Shown here: in pieces, positions 1 to 29,800 of the stretch
Numbering within the stretch: the stretch's first letter is position 1
Layout: each line of letters opens with the position of its first letter
Assembly (NCBI GenBank): GCA_019634695.1
Contig: JAHCAW010000015.1
Location: 1 to 64,000, forward strand
DNA: 64,000 bases
DNA from: Candidatus Sumerlaeia bacterium
GTDB lineage: Bacteria; Sumerlaeota; Sumerlaeia; SLMS01; JAHLLQ01
Reading direction: 5' to 3'
The notes under the pieces: model-generated
What the model was told of the DNA's origin: nothing
Database searches by the model: none
What the model saw: only the letters and a program-made list of their open reading frames with translations
Translations under genes and position numbers: made by a program

Positions 1-2250
1 GTCACGCGTAACGGCAGCCTCGACATGCTCGTCGTCGGCGGGGCGTTCCTCACCGACACGGGCAACATCTCGTACCTGCTCACGAATCGCGGCAGACAGG
101 ACGTGCCGGGCTACGCCGTCTTCACCGAATCCAACGTCGCCCACCCGGCGGGCCGTACCACCACGCCGGGCTGGTCGCTTGTTGGAGGACTGGGCTTTGA
201 GAAAGTCCCCGCCCCGGGCGTGGTCGGACGCCTCTTCGACTTCGACAACGACGGCGACCTCGACATCATCATCGGCTACCACGGCCAGCAGAACGTTCTG
301 TACGAGAACCGCAACGCCTACGGCTCGCCCTTCCCGCAGGTCCCCCTGCTGTACGAGGGCGACAGCATCATGCAGACGCTCGGCGCCTTCTTCGGCAGCG
401 AATTCTACGACTCGCTCAAAGACTACGACACGACCGATCTGCGCGACGACACCTTCCCCGCCCTGCAGCGCGAGATCGAGGCACTCGGCGACGGCGTCTT
501 CGAGGACACGCGTGTTCGCCTGTCGCTCGATCGCCTGCCGACGCTGCTGACCGACCAACTCGAGTTCACCACCGACATCGCCATCGGCGACGTCGACAAC
601 GACGGCTACCTCGACATGTTCTACGCCAACGGCAGCCGCATCGAGCCGATCCCCAACGTCCTGCTTATGAATCGCGGCACCTCGAGCAATCCCAACGAGC
701 CGCTCTTCTACGCCGGCCGCCGCTTCATCGACGAGTCCAAGCTCCAGATCGGCGGCGTCGCCCGCCTGCCCCAGGTCGAGTACTTCGACTTCAACAACGA
801 GCCCACCGGCTTCTTCGACGTCCAGTCCGACGACACCGCCGCGGCGTACTTCTTCGACGCCGATGGCGATGGCGACCTCGACCTGCTCGTCGTCAACCGC
901 AAGGCCACCCTCGTGCCGCCCGGCAACTTCAACTGGCGGCAGGAGATGCAACTGCTCATCAATCAGGGCGGCGCCCAGGGCGGAGCCATCGGCACCTTCC
1001 TGCCGCAGGCGAACTTCCCGCCGACCGATCCCACGACGGGCCAGCCCCTTCAGGTCTTCGCGACCAAGGCTGCCATCGCCGACTTCGGCCGCAAGGGCGA
1101 CATCTCCGAGGACATGAACGGCGACGGCATCGTCACCGCCACCGAGACGCTCAACTTCGACAACATCGTCAAGGCGCTGCAGCGTCAGGCCAACGCGGGC
1201 CTCGGGCCCTTCGCCGGCGGCACGGTGCCCGTACTCTGCCGCGCGCCGGGGACCTACAGCATCCCCGTCACCGAACTGGTCAATCACGAGTACTTCCCGT
1301 GCATGCCCGACGGCACCGTCGTGCGGCCCAGTGACGGCGCCCGCCTCACCCGCCGCGCTCCGCGCTTCGTCGACATGAACGGCAACGGCCAGTTCAACCC
1401 GGTCTACGACATCGTCGTCATCACCGACCAGGGCCGCGACGTCTACCTGTCCAACGATGGCGCCGGCAACTTCACGCTCGCCACCCAGCAGGCGTTCCCA
1501 CAGGACATCCAGAACCACTACAACGACATCAGCGTCGGCGACATCGACCAGGACGGCTGGCTTGACTTCGTCGTCGCCGTCAAGAACCCGAACAACCTCC
1601 TGCCGCCGGCCCATCTCTTCCTGAACCTGGCCCGCCAGGGCGTGCCGCTGTTCGAGCGGCGCCAGAACGAGATTCCCGCCGCCGGCACGACGCAGTTCGT
1701 CAACGCCGCCGAGCAGACCGGTGGCAACACGCGCGCCGTCTACCTGTTCGACGCCGACGGAGACGGCGACCTGGACCTGATCGTCGGCGTTGGCGGCGAA
1801 GTCGTCGGCACGCTGACCTTCGCGGGCCTCAACGCCTTCTACGAGAACCGGCTCAACGGCCAGGGCTTCGATGCCCCGGCCAACCAAGCCTTCATTCGCG
1901 TGCCCGAGACCGGCACCACGCCGGCCGTGCCGCTGCGCGTGACGCTGGCGAGCCCGGGACAGGCCGAACGCGGCAACATCCACACCGTGCGCGTCTACGG
2001 CGAGAAGTTCCGCCCCGGCGCCTCGGTCACCTTCGGTGCCGGCGTCGAACTCGTCGAGCCGCCCATCGTCCGCAACGACGGCATGATCGACGCCAAGGTC
2101 AGCATTCGCGCCAACGCGCCGACCGGCGACCGCATCATCCGCGTCATCAACCCCGACGGCGAGGCCGCCGCTTCACGCAGTGGCGTCTTCCGCGTCCTGG
2201 CAACCAGCCCGCGCACCAGCGTTGGCACCGACTGGATTCTGTACAACTGA
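1..2250 (+). CDS. Secreted FG-GAP/VCBS repeat protein, 5' end missing
   Basis: The reading frame is already open at base 1, so the start lies outside the window; the first ATG inside is at 25 but is probably internal. Counting from that ATG, acidic calcium-binding-type repeats of the FG-GAP/VCBS kind recur: DFDNDGDLD (about residue 72), DVDNDGYLD (189), DADGDGDLD (278), DIDQDGWLD and a second DADGDGDLD near the end. This family usually forms extracellular beta-propellers. The last 90 residues look like an IPT/TIG immunoglobulin-like fold (a VRVYGEKFRPGASVTFG stretch). The protein ends 22 bases before the subtilase-like gene, so the two are probably co-transcribed. No catalytic domain is visible in the part seen; adhesion or surface binding is the likely role, but this is inference from family. 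Confidence 0.85.
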   Translation, partial: VTRNGSLDMLVVGGAFLTDTGNISYLLTNRGRQDVPGYAVFTESNVAHPAGRTTTPGWSLVGGLGFEKVPAPGVVGRLFDFDNDGDLDIIIGYHGQQNVLYENRNAYGSPFPQVPLLYEGDSIMQTLGAFFGSEFYDSLKDYDTTDLRDDTFPALQREIEALGDGVFEDTRVRLSLDRLPTLLTDQLEFTTDIAIGDVDNDGYLDMFYANGSRIEPIPNVLLMNRGTSSNPNEPLFYAGRRFIDESKLQIGGVARLPQVEYFDFNNEPTGFFDVQSDDTAAAYFFDADGDGDLDLLVVNRKATLVPPGNFNWRQEMQLLINQGGAQGGAIGTFLPQANFPPTDPTTGQPLQVFATKAAIADFGRKGDISEDMNGDGIVTATETLNFDNIVKALQRQANAGLGPFAGGTVPVLCRAPGTYSIPVTELVNHEYFPCMPDGTVVRPSDGARLTRRAPRFVDMNGNGQFNPVYDIVVITDQGRDVYLSNDGAGNFTLATQQAFPQDIQNHYNDISVGDIDQDGWLDFVVAVKNPNNLLPPAHLFLNLARQGVPLFERRQNEIPAAGTTQFVNAAEQTGGNTRAVYLFDADGDGDLDLIVGVGGEVVGTLTFAGLNAFYENRLNGQGFDAPANQAFIRVPETGTTPAVPLRVTLASPGQAERGNIHTVRVYGEKFRPGASVTFGAGVELVEPPIVRNDGMIDAKVSIRANAPTGDRIIRVINPDGEAAASRSGVFRVLATSPRTSVGTDWILYN

Positions 2251-2272
2251 CCCCCCGAAGGGATGCACGGCT

Positions 2273-4939
2273 ATGCGACCGGCTCACAGGCACCGCAAGA
2301 CACTGGCAGCGCTCCCGCTGGCGACGCTGCTGGCCGGCATCGTCCCGGCCGACGCCATGATCGACTACGGCCCCGCCCTGGTCGATCGTGCGTCGCTCAC
2401 AGCCAAGGCGGCCATCGAGTCCCATCCGGTCATCGCCGATGACCTGATGGCCGTCGTCCGCGAGGTTGGCGCCCGCAAGAGCGCCAACGCGCGCCTCGCG
2501 TTTGCCGACGACATCAACACGAAGGCCCCCAAGTCGGTCTTTGTCCTCGGCGAGGACGCCAGCCGCATTCAGGTTGTCTTCCGGCTCGCGAACACCAGCC
2601 AGGCCAGTCTGGGCGCGCTCGAGAAGCTGGGTGTCGAGATCGAGTTCGTCTCGCACCACGCGCCGCTCGTGCAGGCCTTCGCTCCCCTCGACCGCCTCGA
2701 AGACCTCGCCGCCCTGCCGGCCGTCCTCGAGATCAACCGCCCCAACTACGCCTTGGCCACTGCGGGCACCATCCGCACCCAGGGTGATCAGGCCATGGCG
2801 ACCACGCTGGTGCGCAATCACTCGGTCGACTTCCGCAACAACGTCAGCTACAACGGCAATGCGGTGCAGGTCTGCGTCGCCTCGGACAACCTCTACATCA
2901 ACCAGGGCGGTCTCGAGCCCGGCCCGTGCAATCTCCTCCAGACAGTCCTCAACTTCGAGGCTCCTGCCGGCCTGCAGCGGGAGCTTCCCCTCGGAATGTT
3001 CCCGTCGTGCGGCTCCATCCCCGGCGCCGGTTTCTTCGGCGGCATTCCGATCAGCCCCGCCACGCATGCCGACCACGTCATGACGGCCAGCTTGCAGACC
3101 GACGAAGACCGCATGTACCGGTTCCATCCTGATGGGTCGGCCATGCTTGAGGTCATCCACGACATCGCGCCGGGTGCCAGCCTGCGCTACATCCGCGGAC
3201 GCACCGACCTGGAGTTGATCGAGCGTCGTCGCATCATGGACTTCCTGTCCATCCCGGTCGACGTCATGGCCGACAATCTGGTCTTCTCGGGAGCGGGTCG
3301 CTACGACGGTTCGAGCGCCGTTTCTCGTTCGGCCACCGAATTCGCCCGCACCCGCAACATCCCCTTCTTCGTCAGCGCGGGCGGTGTCACCCCGCCGGTC
3401 AGCTTCGGCCCCACGCGCGTCCAGCGCTTCCCGGCCCAGATCACCGGTTACTTCAACGCCGATCCGCGCGACACCCGCGTGAAGGTTCACTCCTGGTCCG
3501 GCGGCAGTGCCACGAATCGCGACGAGGCCCTGAGCATCGACGCTATTCCCGGCGAGGCCATCGAGATCGTCCTCGTCTGGGACGACCTGTGGGACGACAT
3601 CCGCCCCCGCGCCAACATCGACCTCGATCTCTACCTCGTGCCGCGCTCGTCGCTTTCGCTCAGCCAAGCCGTCGCCACCTCCGCCCGCATCCAGAACGGT
3701 CAGGGCGTCAATCCCGTCGAACGCCTCGTCTACCTTCCCGGGTCGGACCAGCCGTTGGCGCTCGTCATGGTCAACAAGAACGCCGGCCAGAACATCCGCA
3801 CACTCTTCACCCTCTCCTTCGAGCAGGGGCAGATCGCCGAGAGCCAGTACCTGACCCACGGCGTGCCCTTCGCCAACTCCGACGCCCTCGAGCCGGTCAT
3901 CTCCGTTGGCCACATCGACCTGCTCGTCGGCCAGGAAGACCCTGCCTTCGACGTCATGCCCGGGCTCCAGCCCTACGCCACGCCGGCAACGGAGTTCGTT
4001 CGCTGGTATGAGGGCCAGACCTACCCGACGGTGCTCGGGTACAGCTCGGTGAACACCTACACGACCTTCACCCTCTCCTCGAGCTCGACACGCGATCAGG
4101 CCTTTACTGGACCGTCGGCCTCCGTTGCGCATCTGGCCGGCTTCGCCGCCATCCTGCGCCACCGCGTTCCCCAGATGCCGGCACGCCGCATCCGCGAACT
4201 GTTCACCTCCACCGGCGTCCTCTTCCATGAAGGTGCCGCGCTGGCCCCCTTCGCCACCGACATCACCCCCACGGCCACACGCCTGTATCGCAACCACCCG
4301 ACCTTCATCCGTCCCAATCCCTTCAACATCTACGACGCAATCACCCGCGGGCGCATCGACCCGATCAACCTCGCCGGCACCAAGGAGTCAGTCACCCTTG
4401 TCGACGTCGATGACGACGGCGAGCGCCAGACGACATGGAACGCCTCGCAGGATCGCACCTACAACGCGTTCGACCTGCCCACCTACCGGGTGTCCGATCT
4501 GGGCCTCGAGATGACGCCGACGTCGGACTTCTGCTACGGCTTCTGGCAGAGCCCCCTGCTCACCGTTCAGGGCGCCGAAGACGACGAACCCCGCACCGCG
4601 CTGCGCGCCGACCGCCTTTACGTTGCCGAGGCCCGCATCGGCTCCACCGGCACCGACTCCCGCCGCGTGCCCGACTTCCGCCTGCGGCTCACCTCCGGCG
4701 CCGGCGACGAGAGCGCCCTGCTTGTCATCGCCGACGTCGCCGAGGACGCGCAGAACGCCCCCACCACGCTGGGCGGCAATGTCTACCGGGTCTACTTCCA
4801 GCCCTCCAACGCCGCCGTCGCGGCCTCGGGCGTCACCTTCAACTTCGACATGCTGAACTTCAACCCGGCCGACGATCAGGACGTCACGCTCATCCTGCGC
4901 GACTTCTCCTTCACGGAGCTTGCACTGCCCGCGCCATGA
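2273..4939 (+). CDS. Divergent secreted subtilisin-like (S8) protease
   Basis: The start at 2273 gives 888 residues with a basic N-terminus and a hydrophobic signal peptide ending near PADA; an earlier in-frame ATG overlaps the preceding gene and would spoil the signal peptide. The subtilase triad can be placed: Asp near residue 205 (VQVCVASDN), His near 265 (THADHVMTA, in place of HGTHVAG), Ser near 615 (GPSASVAHLAGFAAIL, in place of GTSMAAPHVAG). The oxyanion-hole Asn usually found in an AAGN-like motif appears as Gly (FFVSAGG, about 370). Between that and the Ser lies a beta-rich insertion resembling a prepeptidase C-terminal domain. About 170 residues precede the catalytic domain and 260 follow it. 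The fold assignment is good, but activity is uncertain because every motif is off consensus. Confidence 0.72.
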   Translation: MRPAHRHRKTLAALPLATLLAGIVPADAMIDYGPALVDRASLTAKAAIESHPVIADDLMAVVREVGARKSANARLAFADDINTKAPKSVFVLGEDASRIQVVFRLANTSQASLGALEKLGVEIEFVSHHAPLVQAFAPLDRLEDLAALPAVLEINRPNYALATAGTIRTQGDQAMATTLVRNHSVDFRNNVSYNGNAVQVCVASDNLYINQGGLEPGPCNLLQTVLNFEAPAGLQRELPLGMFPSCGSIPGAGFFGGIPISPATHADHVMTASLQTDEDRMYRFHPDGSAMLEVIHDIAPGASLRYIRGRTDLELIERRRIMDFLSIPVDVMADNLVFSGAGRYDGSSAVSRSATEFARTRNIPFFVSAGGVTPPVSFGPTRVQRFPAQITGYFNADPRDTRVKVHSWSGGSATNRDEALSIDAIPGEAIEIVLVWDDLWDDIRPRANIDLDLYLVPRSSLSLSQAVATSARIQNGQGVNPVERLVYLPGSDQPLALVMVNKNAGQNIRTLFTLSFEQGQIAESQYLTHGVPFANSDALEPVISVGHIDLLVGQEDPAFDVMPGLQPYATPATEFVRWYEGQTYPTVLGYSSVNTYTTFTLSSSSTRDQAFTGPSASVAHLAGFAAILRHRVPQMPARRIRELFTSTGVLFHEGAALAPFATDITPTATRLYRNHPTFIRPNPFNIYDAITRGRIDPINLAGTKESVTLVDVDDDGERQTTWNASQDRTYNAFDLPTYRVSDLGLEMTPTSDFCYGFWQSPLLTVQGAEDDEPRTALRADRLYVAEARIGSTGTDSRRVPDFRLRLTSGAGDESALLVIADVAEDAQNAPTTLGGNVYRVYFQPSNAAVAASGVTFNFDMLNFNPADDQDVTLILRDFSFTELALPAP

Positions 4940-24578: not shown

Positions 24579-26210
24579 ATGAACGAGTTGTCCTGGCTCA
24601 GTCTGGCCCCGCCGCTGGTCGCCATCCTCGCCGCGCTGGTCACCCGACAGGTGATCCTGTCGCTCTTTCTGGGCATCTGGATGGGGTGGACGGTGCTGTC
24701 GGGGTGGAACCCGCTTGGCGGCCTGGCCGAGGCGCTGGCCCAGCTCATCCGCGTTTTCGAGAGCGGCTACAACACGAAGGTCATCCTGTTCAGCGCGCTC
24801 GTCGGTTCGCTCATCACGTTGACGCAGCGTTCGGGCGGCGTGGAGGGCTTCGTGCAGTGGATGCGCTCGCTGCGCATCGGCCAGACGCATCGCAGCGCCG
24901 GCCTGCTCGCCTTCGTCACCGGCATCGTTGTCTTCGTCGAGTCGAGCATCACCTGTCTGGTCGTCGGCTCGGTGTCGCGTCCGCTCAGCGACCGGGTGCG
25001 CATGGCGCGCGAGAAGCTCGCCTACATCTGCGACTCGACCTCGGCGCCGGTCTGCATCCTGATCCCGCTCAACGCGTGGGGCGCCTACATCATGGGGCTG
25101 CTCGCGGCCGAGGGGGTGGATCGGCCGCTGTCCGTGCTTGCCAAGGCGGTGCCGCTCAACTTCTACGCCTGGCTCGCCCTGCTGCTGGTGCTGATCGTGA
25201 TCCTGACCGGTTGGGACTTTGGCCCGATGAAGGCGGCCGAGCGGCGCGCGCGCGAGACCGGCAAGCTGGTGCGCGACGGCGCCATCCCGATGATCGATGC
25301 CGACGTGATCTCGCTGGCGCCGCGCGAGGGCATTCCGCTGCGCCGGCGCAACATGATGGTGCCCATCGCCACGATGATCCTGATGATGCCCGCCGGCCTG
25401 TTCATCACGGGCTACACGGCGGTGCGCGACAGCGCCGCGACCGCACGCACCGAGTTGCCCGTCGCCGAGGCACGCCATGTCGAGCTGGCCGGGCTGCTGG
25501 CCGAATCCGAAGGCGTTGCCAATCCCGCACTCGACGTGGCTCGCGCCGCCTGGCAGCAGGATCTCGAGACTGCCGCCGCCCGCATCGACACCCTGCGCAC
25601 CCAGTCGCTGCTCCAGCCCGAGTTCTTCGCCATTCTGGACCAGGGCTCGGGTTCGACCGCCGTCTTCTGGGCCGTCGTCGCCGCCATCGTCGTCGCCGCC
25701 TGCATGTATCTGGGTCAGGGTATCCTGTCGCTGGCCGACGTGATGAGCCTGATTCTCAAGGGCGCGGGCGGCCTGATGCCCATGGCCGTCATCATGATGC
25801 TGGCATTCGGGCTCAACGACACATGCGGCGCGCTCGGCACCGGCGCCTACGTCGCCGAGGCCACGAAGGACCTGCTGCACCACGCGTGGATTCCCGGACT
25901 GCTGTTCCTGATCTCGTGCTTCATCGCCTTTTCGACCGGCACCTCGTGGGGCACCTTCGGCATCATGATGCCGATCGGCGTGCCGCTGGTGGCGTTGTCG
26001 GGTGGCAGCCTGCCGCTGGCCGTGGCGGCCATCATGGGCGGGGGCGTCTTCGGCGATCACTGCTCGCCGATCTCGGACACGTCGGTCGTCTCGTCGATGG
26101 CCACGGCGTGCGACCACATCGACCACGTGCGCACGCAGCTTCCCTACGCGCTGCTCGCCGCCGCCGGGGCCTTCGCCATCTACGTCGTCGCCGGGTTCGT
26201 GATGTCGTGA
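24579..26210 (+). CDS. NhaC-family Na+/H+ antiporter
   Basis: 543 residues, about 11 membrane spans. The family signature REKLAYICDSTSAPVCILIPLNAWGAY (read in parts) and the late FSTGTSWGTFGIMMPIGVPL and GDHCSPISDTSVVSSMATACD motifs identify the NhaC/Tet(35)-like group. Where many NhaC proteins have FIDDYFNALTVG, this one has FVESSITCLVVG, a variant seen in a subset of the family, so the transported ions may differ. A periplasmic or cytoplasmic loop of about 80 residues rich in Ala and Glu (RDSAATARTELPVAEA onward) splits the two halves. The start at 24579 follows aagga; longer in-frame starts lack a membrane-like N-terminus. Confidence 0.88.
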   Translation: MNELSWLSLAPPLVAILAALVTRQVILSLFLGIWMGWTVLSGWNPLGGLAEALAQLIRVFESGYNTKVILFSALVGSLITLTQRSGGVEGFVQWMRSLRIGQTHRSAGLLAFVTGIVVFVESSITCLVVGSVSRPLSDRVRMAREKLAYICDSTSAPVCILIPLNAWGAYIMGLLAAEGVDRPLSVLAKAVPLNFYAWLALLLVLIVILTGWDFGPMKAAERRARETGKLVRDGAIPMIDADVISLAPREGIPLRRRNMMVPIATMILMMPAGLFITGYTAVRDSAATARTELPVAEARHVELAGLLAESEGVANPALDVARAAWQQDLETAAARIDTLRTQSLLQPEFFAILDQGSGSTAVFWAVVAAIVVAACMYLGQGILSLADVMSLILKGAGGLMPMAVIMMLAFGLNDTCGALGTGAYVAEATKDLLHHAWIPGLLFLISCFIAFSTGTSWGTFGIMMPIGVPLVALSGGSLPLAVAAIMGGGVFGDHCSPISDTSVVSSMATACDHIDHVRTQLPYALLAAAGAFAIYVVAGFVMS

Positions 26211-26271
26211 TCCGGGCCACGGCGCCGCACGGCGATGGGCTGCATTGGGGTACAGCCCGGCAACATGGACA

Positions 26272-26317
26272 ACAGCTCGGTCCGGCAGGATGGGTAACAG
26301 TCCTACCGCGGAGCTGT
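26272..26317 (+). other. Imperfect two-part hairpin after the NhaC gene
   Basis: Outer arms acagctc (26272-26278) and gagctgt (26311-26317) match exactly; inner arms cggcagga and tcctaccg pair with one mismatch. Two similar words, atggacaacag and atgggtaacag, lie on either side of the inner stem. It could be a terminator, a small RNA or the end of a lost mobile element. Confidence 0.4.
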
Positions 26318-26359
26318 CTTGGGGAGCTGTGCAGGTGGACTGGATGTCGCGAGTCGCTC

Positions 26360-26605
26360 AGCGTGCTTCAGCACGCTCTTCCTTGCCCCCGGGTTCACCC
26401 GGTGGGGGGGCTTGAGGCATTAACTATTGCAGCGCGCTTCAGCGCGACTTCCAATGTGTGATCGTGTGCCGTTCGAGCGACTCCCCCCGGCTGAACAAGG
26501 TTGCAACCATCCGGAAGCACGCTGAAGCGCGCTTCAGAAAAGCCTTTCCAGGCAAGGTCCCGCCTGCTGAAGCAGGGGGCAAAGAAGAGCATGCTGAAGC
26601 ATGCT
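26360..26605. repeat. Family of five hairpins with TGAA/TTCA core
   Basis: Five inverted repeats share a GC-TGAA-GC core (or its complement GC-TTCA-GC) but differ in the outer stem: agcgtgc-ttca-gcacgct (26360-26377), cgcgc-ttca-gcgcg (26433-26446), the 16-base palindrome ctgaagcgcgcttcag (26522-26537), cctgc-tgaa-gcagg (26563-26576) and agcatgc-tgaa-gcatgct (26588-26605). Stem bases change on both sides together, so pairing is preserved while sequence is not. Confidence 0.7.
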
Positions 26606-26723
26606 GAGCGCGTTTGAAGTTGGGTTGTTCGCCGCACAAGTGTGCTGGACGCCGGAATGGAGACGTGGCCGGCTATCGGGCGTTGGCTGCGTCAAAATAC
26701 AAAACGCCATAGGAGGCGTTCCT

Positions 26724-26814
26724 CGAACCACGAGCCACGAACATCGAGCCTCGCGCCACGAGCCTCGCGCCACGAGCCCCGAGCGACGAACTACGCACCA
26801 CGAACCACGAGCTA
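26724..26814. repeat. Thirteen-copy heptanucleotide tandem array
   Basis: Exactly 13 units of 7 bases in register, consensus cgagcca (cgRRcca): cgaacca, cgagcca, cgaacat, cgagcct, cgcgcca and so on to cgagcta. No unit is shorter or longer. The last unit contains the stop codon (TAG, minus strand) of the amidase gene. Substitutions are mostly at units' third, fourth and seventh positions. It resembles the heptameric STRR sequences described in filamentous cyanobacteria in period only. Confidence 0.85.
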
Positions 26815-29800
26815 CTCTGCCACCCCCAGATGCTTCGCTGCGGCCTTGAGGAGTGCGGTGCGGCGGTCGAAGGGATGGACGGTTTCGAGCGGGAAGCCCA
26901 GCACCACGACGTTGGTGCTTGCGATGCCGGCCGCGCGGGCGCCGTCGCCGTATTCGAGCACCACGCGGCCGCCTGCCGCCGGCGTCAGCGCCTCGGCTGA
27001 AGGCACCGCCATCGTCGGCTCCAGCAGGTTGATCGCCGGATCGAGCGTCGCTCCGAAGCGCAGGGTCTTCACGTCGGCGAACGGCTCGGTGGCCCGCACG
27101 GCGTTCGTCTGCGTGGCGCGCGAGACATAGCCCGCGATGCCCAGCGTCTCGGCGGCGAAGCGTCGGCTGTCGGCGTTCGCCTCGGGGCCATCGATCAGAT
27201 CCTCGGCCAAGTAGGCGCCGCTCAGCAGCAACCGGCCGCCGCCGCCGATGTGCTCGCGCAGGCGTGCGCGCGCGGCCGCCGGCAGCACCTCGAACGCCGT
27301 CGCCATCCGGTCCGGGTGGCCCATCGCCGGCATGCCTGTCGGCGGGGGAGTGGAGCGCTGCAAGCCCGCGCACCACGCGATCATCGGCCAGGAGCCCGCG
27401 GGCGTGGCGTCGGCGAAGGCCTCGGCCAGCGCGGAGTCGAACGCGAGGCCGGCCTCCTGCGCCGCACGGCCCCACGCCGCGATATGGTCGAAGCCGTTGC
27501 CGCGCTCCAGATGATCTTCCATGTCGCTGTTGCTCGCGCCCCAGCCCGGCGCCTCGAGGTCGTCCACCCAGTCCGAGGTCCGGTCGTAGTTGTAGACGTT
27601 GCCGACGACCCCGTAGTTCCAGTGCCATCCGACGCCCGGATCGAGATCGCGGTCAAAGCCCGCGGTCGCCTCGTCCTCGTAGTAGGCGGGTCCGCCGACG
27701 CGATCGAATCCATCGACGAGCAGGATCGGCCGCTTGCCGGCCTCCCAGCGCACGCCGACGAGACGGCTCGGGAAGGACTCGCCGCCGGCGTTGGCGGCCG
27801 TCACGCGGAAGTAGTGCGCCTGGCCCTCGGGCACCTCGACGACGAACGGCGACGCCTGCGCGGGCCGGCCATTGTCGAAGCTTCGTCCGTCGCGGCTTGT
27901 GTAGACAATATAGCTTTCCGCGACCGCGGAGGGCTCGAGCGGATCCGGGCGCTCGCGCCAGACGAGCTCGACGCGTCCGTTGCCCAAGTGCCGCGCCGCA
28001 ACGTGCGTCGGCGCCAGCGGCTGGATCACCGGCTCGTAGCCGTTCGAATACGCCACGAACCGAAGCAGCGCCTTGTACACCGCGCGCGCCATGTCGAATT
28101 TGAACCGCGGGTCGAGGCCGTACTTCATGTCATTCATGTTTTGGTGCGACAGCAGCTCGATCAGCGCCGACGGGACATTCGGGCGGCTGGTCTCCGCCAG
28201 CGCCCGGTTGTGCACGTGCCGACGTGCCCACGTGGACGTGTAGAGTCCGCGCGCGGCCCGGACGATCTCGTCGTCGAGCAGCACGGCGAGGTCGCGGTTC
28301 AGCCAGCGCGAGCGCCCGTCCGGGAACGCCGCGCCTCCTTCGCCATCGGTCACCGAATAGATCATGTGCGTGCCGACGAGTCCCTTGTGGTCCACGCCCG
28401 CGTCGCTGTGCCAGGAGAGATAGAGGTCCACCGGCACGTTGAGCCCGTCGCTGTCGCGCCATCCGTTGTTCGGGCCGCTTGGGCGGCCCAGCAGATAGTT
28501 CGGCCACTCGCTGCGCGAGAAGTAGTCGCGGGCATAGTCCACGCCGAAGTGCTGCGGCGGACCGCCGCGCAGGAAGACCGAGTCGGCCGGCGCGCCCGCG
28601 TATTGCAGGAAGTAGCGCGCCGCCTCCGCGTAACGCGGCTTGCCGCTGATCTGTCCATCGACCGCCACGTTGCCCATGCCGCCGCCGAAGCGCACCGCGT
28701 CCGCCGTCACATACGTCGCGCCGCCGCGTCCGCTGGGCGTCGCCCCGTTCGTCGAAATCACCACCGCGCCCTTCTCCGGATCGGCGCCCTGCACGAACTC
28801 GAAGAAGCCCAGCACCACCCAGGTGCCGCCCGAGGATTGCTGGTTCACGCGCACGGTCGTCTGTCCGCCCGCGTGCCGGATCGTCACCGGCACCGACGGG
28901 CTATTCTCCGGCGCGTGCGCCCACGAGATGCTGACGGCATAGCGCCCGTCGCGCGGGATATAGGGCACGTAGAGCGCCTCGGACACGCGCGCCTCCACGG
29001 CGGCGCGCAGCGTCGTGCCTTGCTGGAAGGGCTCGTCGCCCTCGTCCAGCGACGCCGGCCGCCCGCCGCGCCATCCGCTTGCCGCGCCCGTTTCCCACGC
29101 GCCGCTCGCCAGGAACTGCGACTTGTCGCGCAGCCCGTCATTGTCCACGATCACCTCTTCGGTGTTCCAGTCGCGCTCGCGCGCCGAATAGACCACCGCC
29201 CCCGCGTTCTCCAGCATCGGCATCAGGAACGGAAGGATGTAGGAGGGCGAGAACAGGTCCTCGATCGTCGTGTGCAGGCGGCAGCGTTGGAACTGCCAGC
29301 GATTCTCCATGTGCCAGGTCCAGCCGTGACTCGGCGCGATCACCAGGTGCCGGCCGGCCAACCCCGCGGCCGGCGTCGGGCCGACGTACTCCGGGCGCTG
29401 CACCACCGGGGCAGCCAACCGCGGCCCGTCCACCGTGCGTTCCTGCTCGCGTGCGCGAATGTGCGCTGGGCTCGTGACATGATCCTCGAACGAGACGTCG
29501 TTGACGCGGCCGCGCCCGGCTGGATAGCGCACGACGATTTCGAGCGCCTTCGGATCGACGCCCAGAGCCCCGGCGACGAACGCCTGCAAGCGCGCCGCCT
29601 CCTCGGGGTACCAACGCCGGTAGCCCAGATGCACGCTGAACGCCGCGCGCACCTTGTCGGTGCCGCGCTCGACCGCCTCGACCTTCGTCGCCGGCGGAAT
29701 CAATCCGTCATATCCCCCCGCGCCGCGCCGCCGTTCCGCATCCAGCGCCTTCGTCAACGCCTCGGACCCTGCCGCGTCCGGTTCTCCGACCCATGATGCC

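What the first reader, a model, noticed from the sequence alone, without database searches (positions are those of the whole stretch)
26360..26605. Five hairpins with fixed TGAA loop and covarying stems
In about 250 bases, five inverted repeats share GC-TGAA-GC or its complement, while the outer stems differ (agcgtgc, cgcgc, gaagcgc, cctgc, agcatgc). Bases on both sides change together, so base pairing seems to be what is kept. This differs from REP or ERIC families, in which sequence is also kept. The loop and its closing GC pair could be the recognition element.
Basis: seen in the sequence. Interest (0 to 1): 0.7.

Follow-up and report, generated by a model that had tools for sequence, protein, structure and literature searches.

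The report
Hairpin-armed miniature mobile element
The hairpins belong to a roughly 250-base parasitic DNA element, apparently a stripped-down relative of a small jumping gene found elsewhere in the same genome, and what is kept across distant bacteria is mainly the little loop at the tip of each hairpin, not the stem below it.

Summary
Six hairpins (not five) lie in 26357-26608: three on the left with loop TTCA, mirrored by three on the right with loop TGAA. The block is one copy of a dispersed inverted element. R1 finds 32 arms in the genome: 11 gene-less doublets, one doublet enclosing a Y1 HUH transposase gene (contig C64), one doublet with a decayed arm, and six lone or contig-edge arms. 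It is best read as a REPIN-like, non-autonomous derivative of that transposase element.

Around 38 homologous transposase genes, from Sumerlaeota, Hydrogenedentota, Planctomycetota, Acidobacteriota and others, 83 of 112 perfect tetraloop hairpins have loop TGAA/TAAA in one polarity (0.1 expected from shuffles), on 30 different stems. Within and between genomes the stems change by compensation. Some other Y1 clades in these bacteria have similar arms with other loops (TGCC, GTT).

The transposase carries the Y---Q--HH signature of 'subclass 1.2' TnpA, described in print as generally without such hairpins. Mobility, binding and cleavage are inferred, not shown. New variant of a known kind (REP/REPIN and IS200-type systems).

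The parts
26357..26608 (.). core of the non-autonomous six-hairpin element, from CTCAGC to GCTGAG (252 bases)
   Evidence: flanks of 12 doublets laid side by side: lengths 250-255 in 11 without gene, 651 in the one with gene; own-genome matches
26351..26457 (-). left arm (HP1-HP2-HP3 read inwards)
   Evidence: covariance model R1 match, 109 bits, E 2.3e-23 (the arm was part of the model)
26507..26614 (+). right arm (HP3-HP2-HP1 read outwards)
   Evidence: covariance model R1 match, 105.7 bits (the arm was part of the model)
26360..26377 (-). HP1-left hairpin, 7-bp stem, loop TTCA (TGAA on the - strand)
26389..26402 (-).
26433..26446 (-). HP3-left hairpin CGCGC-TTCA-GCGCG
26458..26506 (.). central spacer of 49 bases; takes the place that the transposase gene has in the C64 copy
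   Evidence: gap 45-51 in the 11 gene-less doublets, 444 in C64
26514..26535 (+). HP3-right hairpin with one A.C mismatch, loop TGAA
26563..26576 (+). HP2-right hairpin CCTGC-TGAA-GCAGG
26588..26605 (+). HP1-right hairpin AGCATGC-TGAA-GCATGCT
26330..26356 (.). left extension, 85% identical to the same place beside the C98 copy; true outer limit of the mobile unit uncertain
26650..26711 (.). right stretch, 76% identical to the same place beside the C55 copy

Best explanation
This is a non-autonomous (gene-less) copy of a small single-strand transposon, a REPIN-like doublet with three hairpins per arm. The gene-bearing copy lies on contig C64 of the same genome. It encodes a 151-aa HUH single-tyrosine (Y1) transposase with the motif set of 'subclass 1.2' TnpA, enclosed by the same two inverted arms.

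Proposed working. When the region is single-stranded, for example during replication, each arm folds into three short hairpins. A transposase dimer reads the TRAA loop with its closing GC step on the correctly oriented hairpins, largely regardless of the stem below. It cuts next to the outer hairpin through its tyrosine and joins or moves the enclosed piece in trans. Stems drift as long as pairing is kept; loops hardly do.

Shown here: the anatomy, dispersal, inverted doublets, enclosed transposase gene, conserved catalytic residues and predicted fold, loop conservation with stem covariation, and restriction of detected arms to 13 of 39 class genomes, which include all 7 transposase-positive ones. 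Inferred: loop reading by this enzyme, cleavage, movement, and the strand used.
For: Dispersed inverted copies. R1 finds 32 arms in the own genome: 11 gene-less doublets, one gene-bearing doublet, one doublet with a decayed arm, six single or contig-edge arms. Of 36 close arm pairs among 152 places (the 32 plus 120 from the capped list, out of 266 arms), 34 are inverted with HP1 outward, 0 with HP1 inward, 2 in the same direction.

C64 gene between the arms. Pfam Y1_Tnp 6.5e-17; NCBIfam IS200 56 bits against cut-off 55. H60, H62, W99, Q100, Y119, Q123 and H127 are invariant in 31 of 31 aligned homologues and H126 at 90% or more. AlphaFold model pLDDT 87.5, nearest to ISDra2 and IS608 transposases, then TnpA-REP 4er8.

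Loop: 83 of 112 perfect tetraloop hairpins within 250 nt of 38 genes are TRAA in one polarity, 10 TTYA; shuffles give 5.25 hairpins and 0.1 TRAA. 31 of 38 loci have one. Covariation.

Distribution: 13 of 39 class genomes have arms, including all 7 with the transposase (Fisher 1.1e-4, not corrected for relatedness). Loop type clusters on the transposase tree: 3 changes against 6.8 in shuffles, 36 of 61 rows counted.
Against: No movement, binding or cleavage was observed, and no empty site could be shown: in the same-genus genome the two flanking regions lie on different contigs. 7 of 38 homologue loci have no perfect TRAA hairpin of stem 6 or more within 250 nt. Six genomes have arms without a detected transposase at E 1e-25, though G016 has a 47-codon transposase fragment between two arms. 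Homology extends beyond HP1 in 7 of 13 copies compared, so the ends of the moving unit are uncertain. Many loci are related, so the hairpin counts, the Fisher test and the tree test are not independent events. In own-genome arms the HP3 stem holds two pairs that are unpaired in 13 of 30 each, the HP2 stem a pair unpaired in 27 of 29 with letters, and 'further pair types' did not exceed shuffles. Four TRAA-labelled rows lie among the other transposase clades.
Confidence: 0.83

Rival explanations
1. Formerly mobile doublets that the host now uses as bidirectional transcript ends or 3'-end stabilisers between convergent genes; the hairpins act in RNA.
For: 11 of 13 copies with both neighbours called lie between convergent genes, against 16 of 54 adjacent pairs (p 6.4e-5) or 8 of 20 pairs with gaps of 300 or more (p 1.3e-3) in a sample that itself held three copies; without those, 13 of 51 and 5 of 17 (p 1.4e-5 and 5.9e-5). 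One terminator-like site on the - strand uses HP1-right.
Against: By that scan only one of the six hairpins is followed by a T-run. The same arms enclose the transposase gene. Presence is patchy: none in the one same-genus and three same-family genomes nor in six of seven same-order genomes. Insertion or survival where no promoter is hit also explains the location. The gene caller was a crude GC3 rule.
Confidence: 0.12
2. A structured non-coding RNA or riboswitch family, with the UGAA tetraloop as an RNA motif.
For: Covariation and a conserved tetraloop.
Against: No Rfam match in the window at gathering thresholds other than a tRNA. Arms are mirrored on both strands around a spacer of 45-51 bases in the own genome. 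Polarity follows the transposase gene. No promoter-like site in 26180-26850 by a sigma-70 consensus scan.
Confidence: 0.03
3. Passive dispersal: copies spread with flanking segments by recombination or duplication, without a cognate transposase.
For: 7 of 13 copies compared share 27 to about 110 bp of sequence outside the outer hairpins with another copy, and two share 245 bp further downstream.
Against: Six of the 13 copies show no flank similarity to another copy at E 1e-3, and other genomes have similar doublet geometry. Arms and transposase co-occur.
Confidence: 0.06

Closest known systems
REPINs and RAYT/TnpA-REP REPtrons (PMC3116915, PMC2817692, PMC8266576: passages read)
   Same: Inverted doublets of hairpin units, one transposase gene flanked by inverted copies, gene-less copies in non-coding DNA, compensatory changes, loop positions important in group 3 REPs. 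Some listed REPs also have TTCA/TTTA loops (Table 1 of PMC2817692, passage).
   Different: Three hairpins per arm with preferred spacings; no GTAG/GTGG head (2 of 83 hairpins on one strand, 0 of 83 on the other); transposase has Y---Q--HH, not Y----NP; nearest structures are IS200/IS605 transposases.
TnpA-Y1 'subclass 1.2' of Quentin and others 2018 (PMC6006769: passages and sections 17, 18, 27, 30 read)
   Same: HUH, WQ and Y---Q--HH motifs, short protein, low gene copy number.
   Different: Published as generally without typical terminal IS200 hairpins, with 'no' under REP, and mostly in Cyanobacteria and Bacteroidetes; here with elaborate hairpin arms in other phyla.
IS200/IS605 insertion sequences (IS608, ISDra2)
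   Same: Same predicted transposase fold; recognition of subterminal hairpins is the known mode.
   Different: Here the arms are inverted, there are three hairpins per arm, the 444-base gap has no room for tnpB, and gene-less copies outnumber the single gene copy.
TnpA-Y1 'class 3' of the same paper
   Same: Planctomycete and acidobacterial distribution, many hairpins, resembles both IS and REPtron.
   Different: Class 3 motifs NHVH, W[TA], YV[VI][AENY]EQ differ from the W and Y motifs here and from the own protein's DHLH.

Membership tests
REP/RAYT (class 2 TnpA-REP) system | transposase gene flanked by two REP units in inverted orientation | tested here: met
   C64 copy: left arm, gene, mirrored right arm
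REP/RAYT (class 2 TnpA-REP) system | GTAG or GTGG tetranucleotide 0-2 nt 5' of the hairpin | tested here: not met
   2 of 83 TRAA hairpins on the TRAA strand, 0 of 83 on the TTYA strand; consensus foot of HP1 is GAAG
REP/RAYT (class 2 TnpA-REP) system | Y motif of type YIxxNP | tested here: not met
   own protein YVLKQKEHH; Q123 and H127 invariant in 31 of 31
REPIN | inverted doublet of repeat units as dispersed, gene-less unit | tested here: met
   11 gene-less doublets in the own genome; 29 HP1-outward doublets with gap up to 130 among 152 arms examined of 266
REPIN | moves within the genome through the cognate transposase | not testable with these tools
   needs population sequencing or in vitro assay; no empty site found
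TnpA-Y1 subclass 1.2 | Y---Q--HH and WQ motifs | tested here: met
   motif definition from PMC6006769 sections 17-18; the authors' own profile was not at hand
TnpA-Y1 subclass 1.2 | generally no REP or typical terminal hairpins | tested here: not met
   31 of 38 loci have TRAA hairpins; of two Bacteroidota plasmid genes with this motif one has mirrored hairpins and one has none
IS200/IS605 insertion sequence | Y---Q transposase with the IS200 fold | tested here: met
IS200/IS605 insertion sequence | several near-identical gene-bearing copies per genome | tested here: not met
   one copy of this transposase in G000; the other three matches are 26-35% identical
TnpA-Y1 class 3 | NHVH, W[TA], YV[VI][AENY]EQ motifs | tested here: not met
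   WQ invariant and Q at Y+4 in 31 of 31; own HuH is DHLH

The most novel reading that the evidence does not exclude
A distinct, widespread family of single-strand transposons in which a subclass-1.2 HUH transposase reads a loop code. A TRAA loop on a GC step, repeated three times per arm at preferred spacings, is recognised almost independently of stem sequence, and sister transposase clades in the same bacteria have switched the code (TGCC, GTT and others) while keeping multi-hairpin arms. This would give subclass 1.2 its missing substrate and make the step from IS200-type insertion sequence to REP/REPIN system visible in living examples.
Probability: 0.5. Interest if true: 0.75.

Novelty: new variant of a known kind. 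Interest (0 to 1): 0.6.

Why it matters
How REP/REPIN systems arose from IS200-type transposons, and what in the hairpin the enzyme reads, is open. Here are elements with an IS200-like enzyme but REPIN-like DNA, from several phyla, in which natural variation has already scrambled the stems and kept the loop. Loop reading becomes directly testable with one purified protein and a few oligonucleotides. It also qualifies the published picture of subclass 1.2 TnpA as generally lacking hairpin partners.

Tried and rejected
Octamer count: GCTGAAGC alone is not enriched in the genome, so I dropped it as a search key and used BLAST and a covariance model.

Rfam: nothing but a tRNA in the window at gathering thresholds.

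First genome-contig scan with the single protein: 24 stretches matched a pattern, none confirmed. The second, with alignment A1, gave 37 loci out of 55 pattern matches.

Empty site: searched four genomes with the flanking genes. In G001 the two halves match different contigs, so no empty site was shown.

Target-site duplication and exact ends: the flanks of 12 doublets and of 13 copies show loose shared sequence outside the outer hairpins in some; no clear duplication or target motif was seen by eye. A first regex for this failed.

Plasmid relatives as subclass 1.2 test: 6 records, only two with the Y---Q--HH motif. Persicobacter has mirrored hairpins with other loops; Bernardetia has none.

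Rows dropped: L148 was left out of A2 because its frame diverges at the C-terminus; six loci with stop codons (L147, L149, L151, L155, L157, L162) were left out of A2 but kept in the hairpin census and, with X at stops, in the tree. L065, L066 and L091, examined, were not put in the tree. In the tree, 23 of 61 rows had no clear loop label and two more had single odd labels (TTTA, TGAC); 36 were counted. The label is the commonest loop near the gene and mixes hairpin positions; in L082 and L093 it rests on hairpin-2-like loops. L107 (contig edge) and L124 (same place as L112) were left out of A4, which uses 24 fetched loci; one search listed more places that were not fetched. The arm table requires paired stems and a spacing of 25-31 by construction, so it is not used as evidence for covariation or spacing; one search gives the unconstrained spacings.

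In the own-genome covariation test one of five measures, further pair types, did not exceed shuffles (360 of 500 as high). Genome counts by R1 are lower bounds (about 99 candidates scored per genome).

Paper searches for prior description. I saw no report of this hairpin family in their listings; this covers only the open-licence papers held.

Full report
WHAT IS THERE. The region 26357-26608 holds six hairpins. On the left arm three have loop TTCA; on the right arm three have loop TGAA. The two arms mirror each other, so the element matches its own reverse complement at 68%. Five perfect TGAA/TTCA hairpins of stem 5 or more occur in 283 bases, against a mean of 0.003 in 2000 shuffles. The bare octamer GCTGAAGC is not over-represented in the genome: 357 hits against 923 for the reversed control. 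The block folds well as single-stranded DNA, z = -8.3; the minimum-energy fold is a long one in which left and right arm pair.

IT IS A DISPERSED ELEMENT. Searching the window's own assembly (4.35 Mb, 127 contigs, 86% complete) with the region gives many full and partial copies, the full-length ones at 69-87% identity. A covariance model built from 30 own-genome arms finds 32 arms there. These are 11 gene-less inverted doublets with a central gap of 45-51 bases, one doublet with a gap of 444 bases, one doublet whose second arm is decayed (C54), and six single or contig-edge arms. In all 13 doublets hairpin 1 faces outward. Eleven of 13 copies with both neighbours called lie between convergent genes; three further copies were unresolved. 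The baseline is 16 of 54 adjacent pairs (p = 6.4e-5), or 8 of 20 with gaps of 300 or more (p = 1.3e-3), in a sample that included three copies. Without those it is 13 of 51 and 5 of 17 (p = 1.4e-5 and 5.9e-5). The gene caller was a crude GC3 rule. The window copy lies between a Na+/H+ antiporter-family gene ending at 26210 and a convergent reading frame from 26812.

THE GENE-BEARING COPY. The 444-base gap on contig C64 holds a transposase gene of 151 codons directly inside the two arms. It matches Pfam Y1_Tnp and just passes NCBIfam's IS200/IS605 cut-off, 56 against 55 bits; it scores only 17 bits against a cut-off of 80 for the REP-associated model. In 31 aligned homologues H60, H62, W99, Q100, Y119, Q123 and H127 are invariant and H126 at least 90%. 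That is the HUH-Y1 catalytic set plus the Y---Q--HH signature that Quentin and others (PMC6006769, sections 17 and 18) give for their subclass 1.2. Their table enters 'no' under REP for that subclass and names Cyanobacteria and Bacteroidetes. The predicted structure (pLDDT 87.5) is closest to ISDra2 and IS608 transposases (Z about 14) and next to the E. coli REP transposase 4er8 (Z 11.2).

LOOP KEPT, STEM FREE. Homologous genes were fetched by protein patterns and tblastn, without regard to hairpins: 37 loci from public genomes plus the window genome's own. Record titles include Sumerlaeota, Hydrogenedentota, Planctomycetota, Acidobacteriota, Chloroflexi, Armatimonadota, KSB1 and Electryonea. 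In up to 250 bases either side of these 38 genes there are 112 perfect tetraloop hairpins of stem 6 or more. Of these, 83 are TGAA or TAAA in the polarity of the window's right arm and 10 the reverse; shuffles give 5.25 hairpins and 0.1 TRAA; 53.5 kb farther out gives 29 hairpins with 2 TRAA and 4 TTYA. 31 of 38 loci have at least one, 19 of 36 on both sides. The 83 hairpins have 30 different 6-bp stems. The pair next to the loop is C-G in 69, the next is G-C in 70, and the third is any of the four pairs (16, 38, 15, 14). Of 33 unconstrained distances between neighbouring TRAA hairpins, 14 are 27-29 and 8 are 42-45; in the window they are 27 and 45 on the right arm. A GGCAA-like linker recurs between hairpins 2 and 1.

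COVARIATION WITHOUT PAIRING AS A SELECTION RULE. In 30 own-genome arms found by BLAST, 90.8% of cells pair, 8 of 20 pairs have a double change and 53 cells are doubly changed, against 22.1 +/- 4.2 in shuffles; sliding the partner destroys this. Hairpin 1 is paired in 100% of cells although two of its positions vary. Against: one pair of hairpin 2 is unpaired in 27 arms, two pairs of hairpin 3 in 13 of 30 each, and the measure 'further pair types' did not exceed shuffles. In 26 arms (two window arms and 24 from nine other genomes, also found by BLAST), 39 cells are doubly changed against 9.1 +/- 2.8, with 19 further pair types against 13.9 +/- 1.7. The loops there are TGAA/TAAA in 23 of 26 (hairpin 3), 24 of 26 (hairpin 2, plus two TGAAA) and 20 of 26 (hairpin 1); in the 30 own-genome arms 30, 30 and 28.

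DISTRIBUTION. In the 39 class genomes held, 13 have arms (266 found) and 7 have the transposase at E 1e-25. All 7 are among the 13 (one-sided Fisher 1.1e-4). No arms were found in the one same-genus genome, in the three same-family genomes or in six of seven same-order genomes; G010 is the exception with 16. This patchiness suggests horizontal arrival or loss. Six genomes have arms without a detected full transposase; in G016 a transposase fragment lies between two arms 190 bases apart, a plausible step between gene-bearing and gene-less forms.

OTHER LOOPS IN SISTER CLADES. Of 26 other Y1 loci examined, about 14 show a loop repeated in two or more nearby hairpins: TGCC on 4, GTT on several, TRAA on four, others; the rest show none or no repeated loop. 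On a quick tree of 61 proteins the loop type needs 3 changes against 6.8 in shuffles. Only 36 rows were counted, relatives are not independent, and four TRAA rows lie in the other clades, two of them by hairpin-2-like loops. The pattern is what loop recognition would predict, and it fits the RAYT-REP coevolution already reported (PMC2817692, abstract passage).

HOW IT MOST LIKELY WORKS. By analogy with IS608, ISDra2 and TnpA-REP (PMC8266576, passages), a transposase dimer binds folded single-stranded hairpins, cuts with its tyrosine near the outer hairpin and joins ends. Gene-less doublets would move in trans. In that paper three loop positions of one group 3 REP were crucial, while swapping its whole stem affected cleavage only moderately, a precedent for loop reading. 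Which strand is read, where it is cut and whether the unit still moves are not shown. The outer limits are also unsettled, because 7 of 13 copies share sequence beyond hairpin 1 with another copy.

NOVELTY. The kind is known: REP/REPIN plus IS200-type systems. New, as far as the listings go, are the three-hairpin inverted arms with a TRAA loop, their cross-phylum conservation over drifting stems, and their link to a transposase with subclass 1.2 motifs. I file it as a new variant of a known kind and not as a member of the REP/RAYT class, because the GTAG head and the Y----NP motif were tested and not met.

Noticed in passing
L065 (G000:C41:23122-23346), frame 169-3225: An in-frame REP-type Y1 transposase domain sits inside a leucyl-tRNA synthetase reading frame, apparently splitting its editing domain (leuS_bact 783.9 bits, REP_Tyr_transpos 75.3 bits against a cut-off of 80). 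An 8-bp hairpin CTCGGGCG/CGCCCGAG lies downstream of the transposase domain, with a similar one visible upstream.
   Followed up: partly
L061 (C13), L062 (C40), L063 (C41), L074, L081, L095: Other Y1 transposase genes with hairpin arms, mirrored in most of these, but with different conserved loops (TGCC, GTT) on varying stems.
   Followed up: partly
window 26248-26331: Stretch left of the element is 78% identical to C106:108657-108741 on the other strand, next to another copy of the element; looks like a fragment of a different repeat.
   Followed up: no
window 26724-26812: Degenerate 7-base tandem repeat CGAGCCA, 12.7 copies; weak matches to this stretch recur on many contigs.
   Followed up: no
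window 26701-26722: Terminator-like hairpin on the - strand for the convergent gene; a GTCAAAATACAAAA-like motif beside it recurs at a similar distance from the C1 and C55 copies.
   Followed up: no
window 26027-26104: ARAGORN calls a tRNA-Ser(act) inside the antiporter gene; Rfam does not support it, probably a false call.
   Followed up: no
L064 2011-2400 (C64, right of the gene-bearing copy): Tandem array of roughly 120-base units containing hairpin-1-like pieces (GAAGCACGCTGAGAGAACTGCGATGG), visible in the sequence.
   Followed up: no
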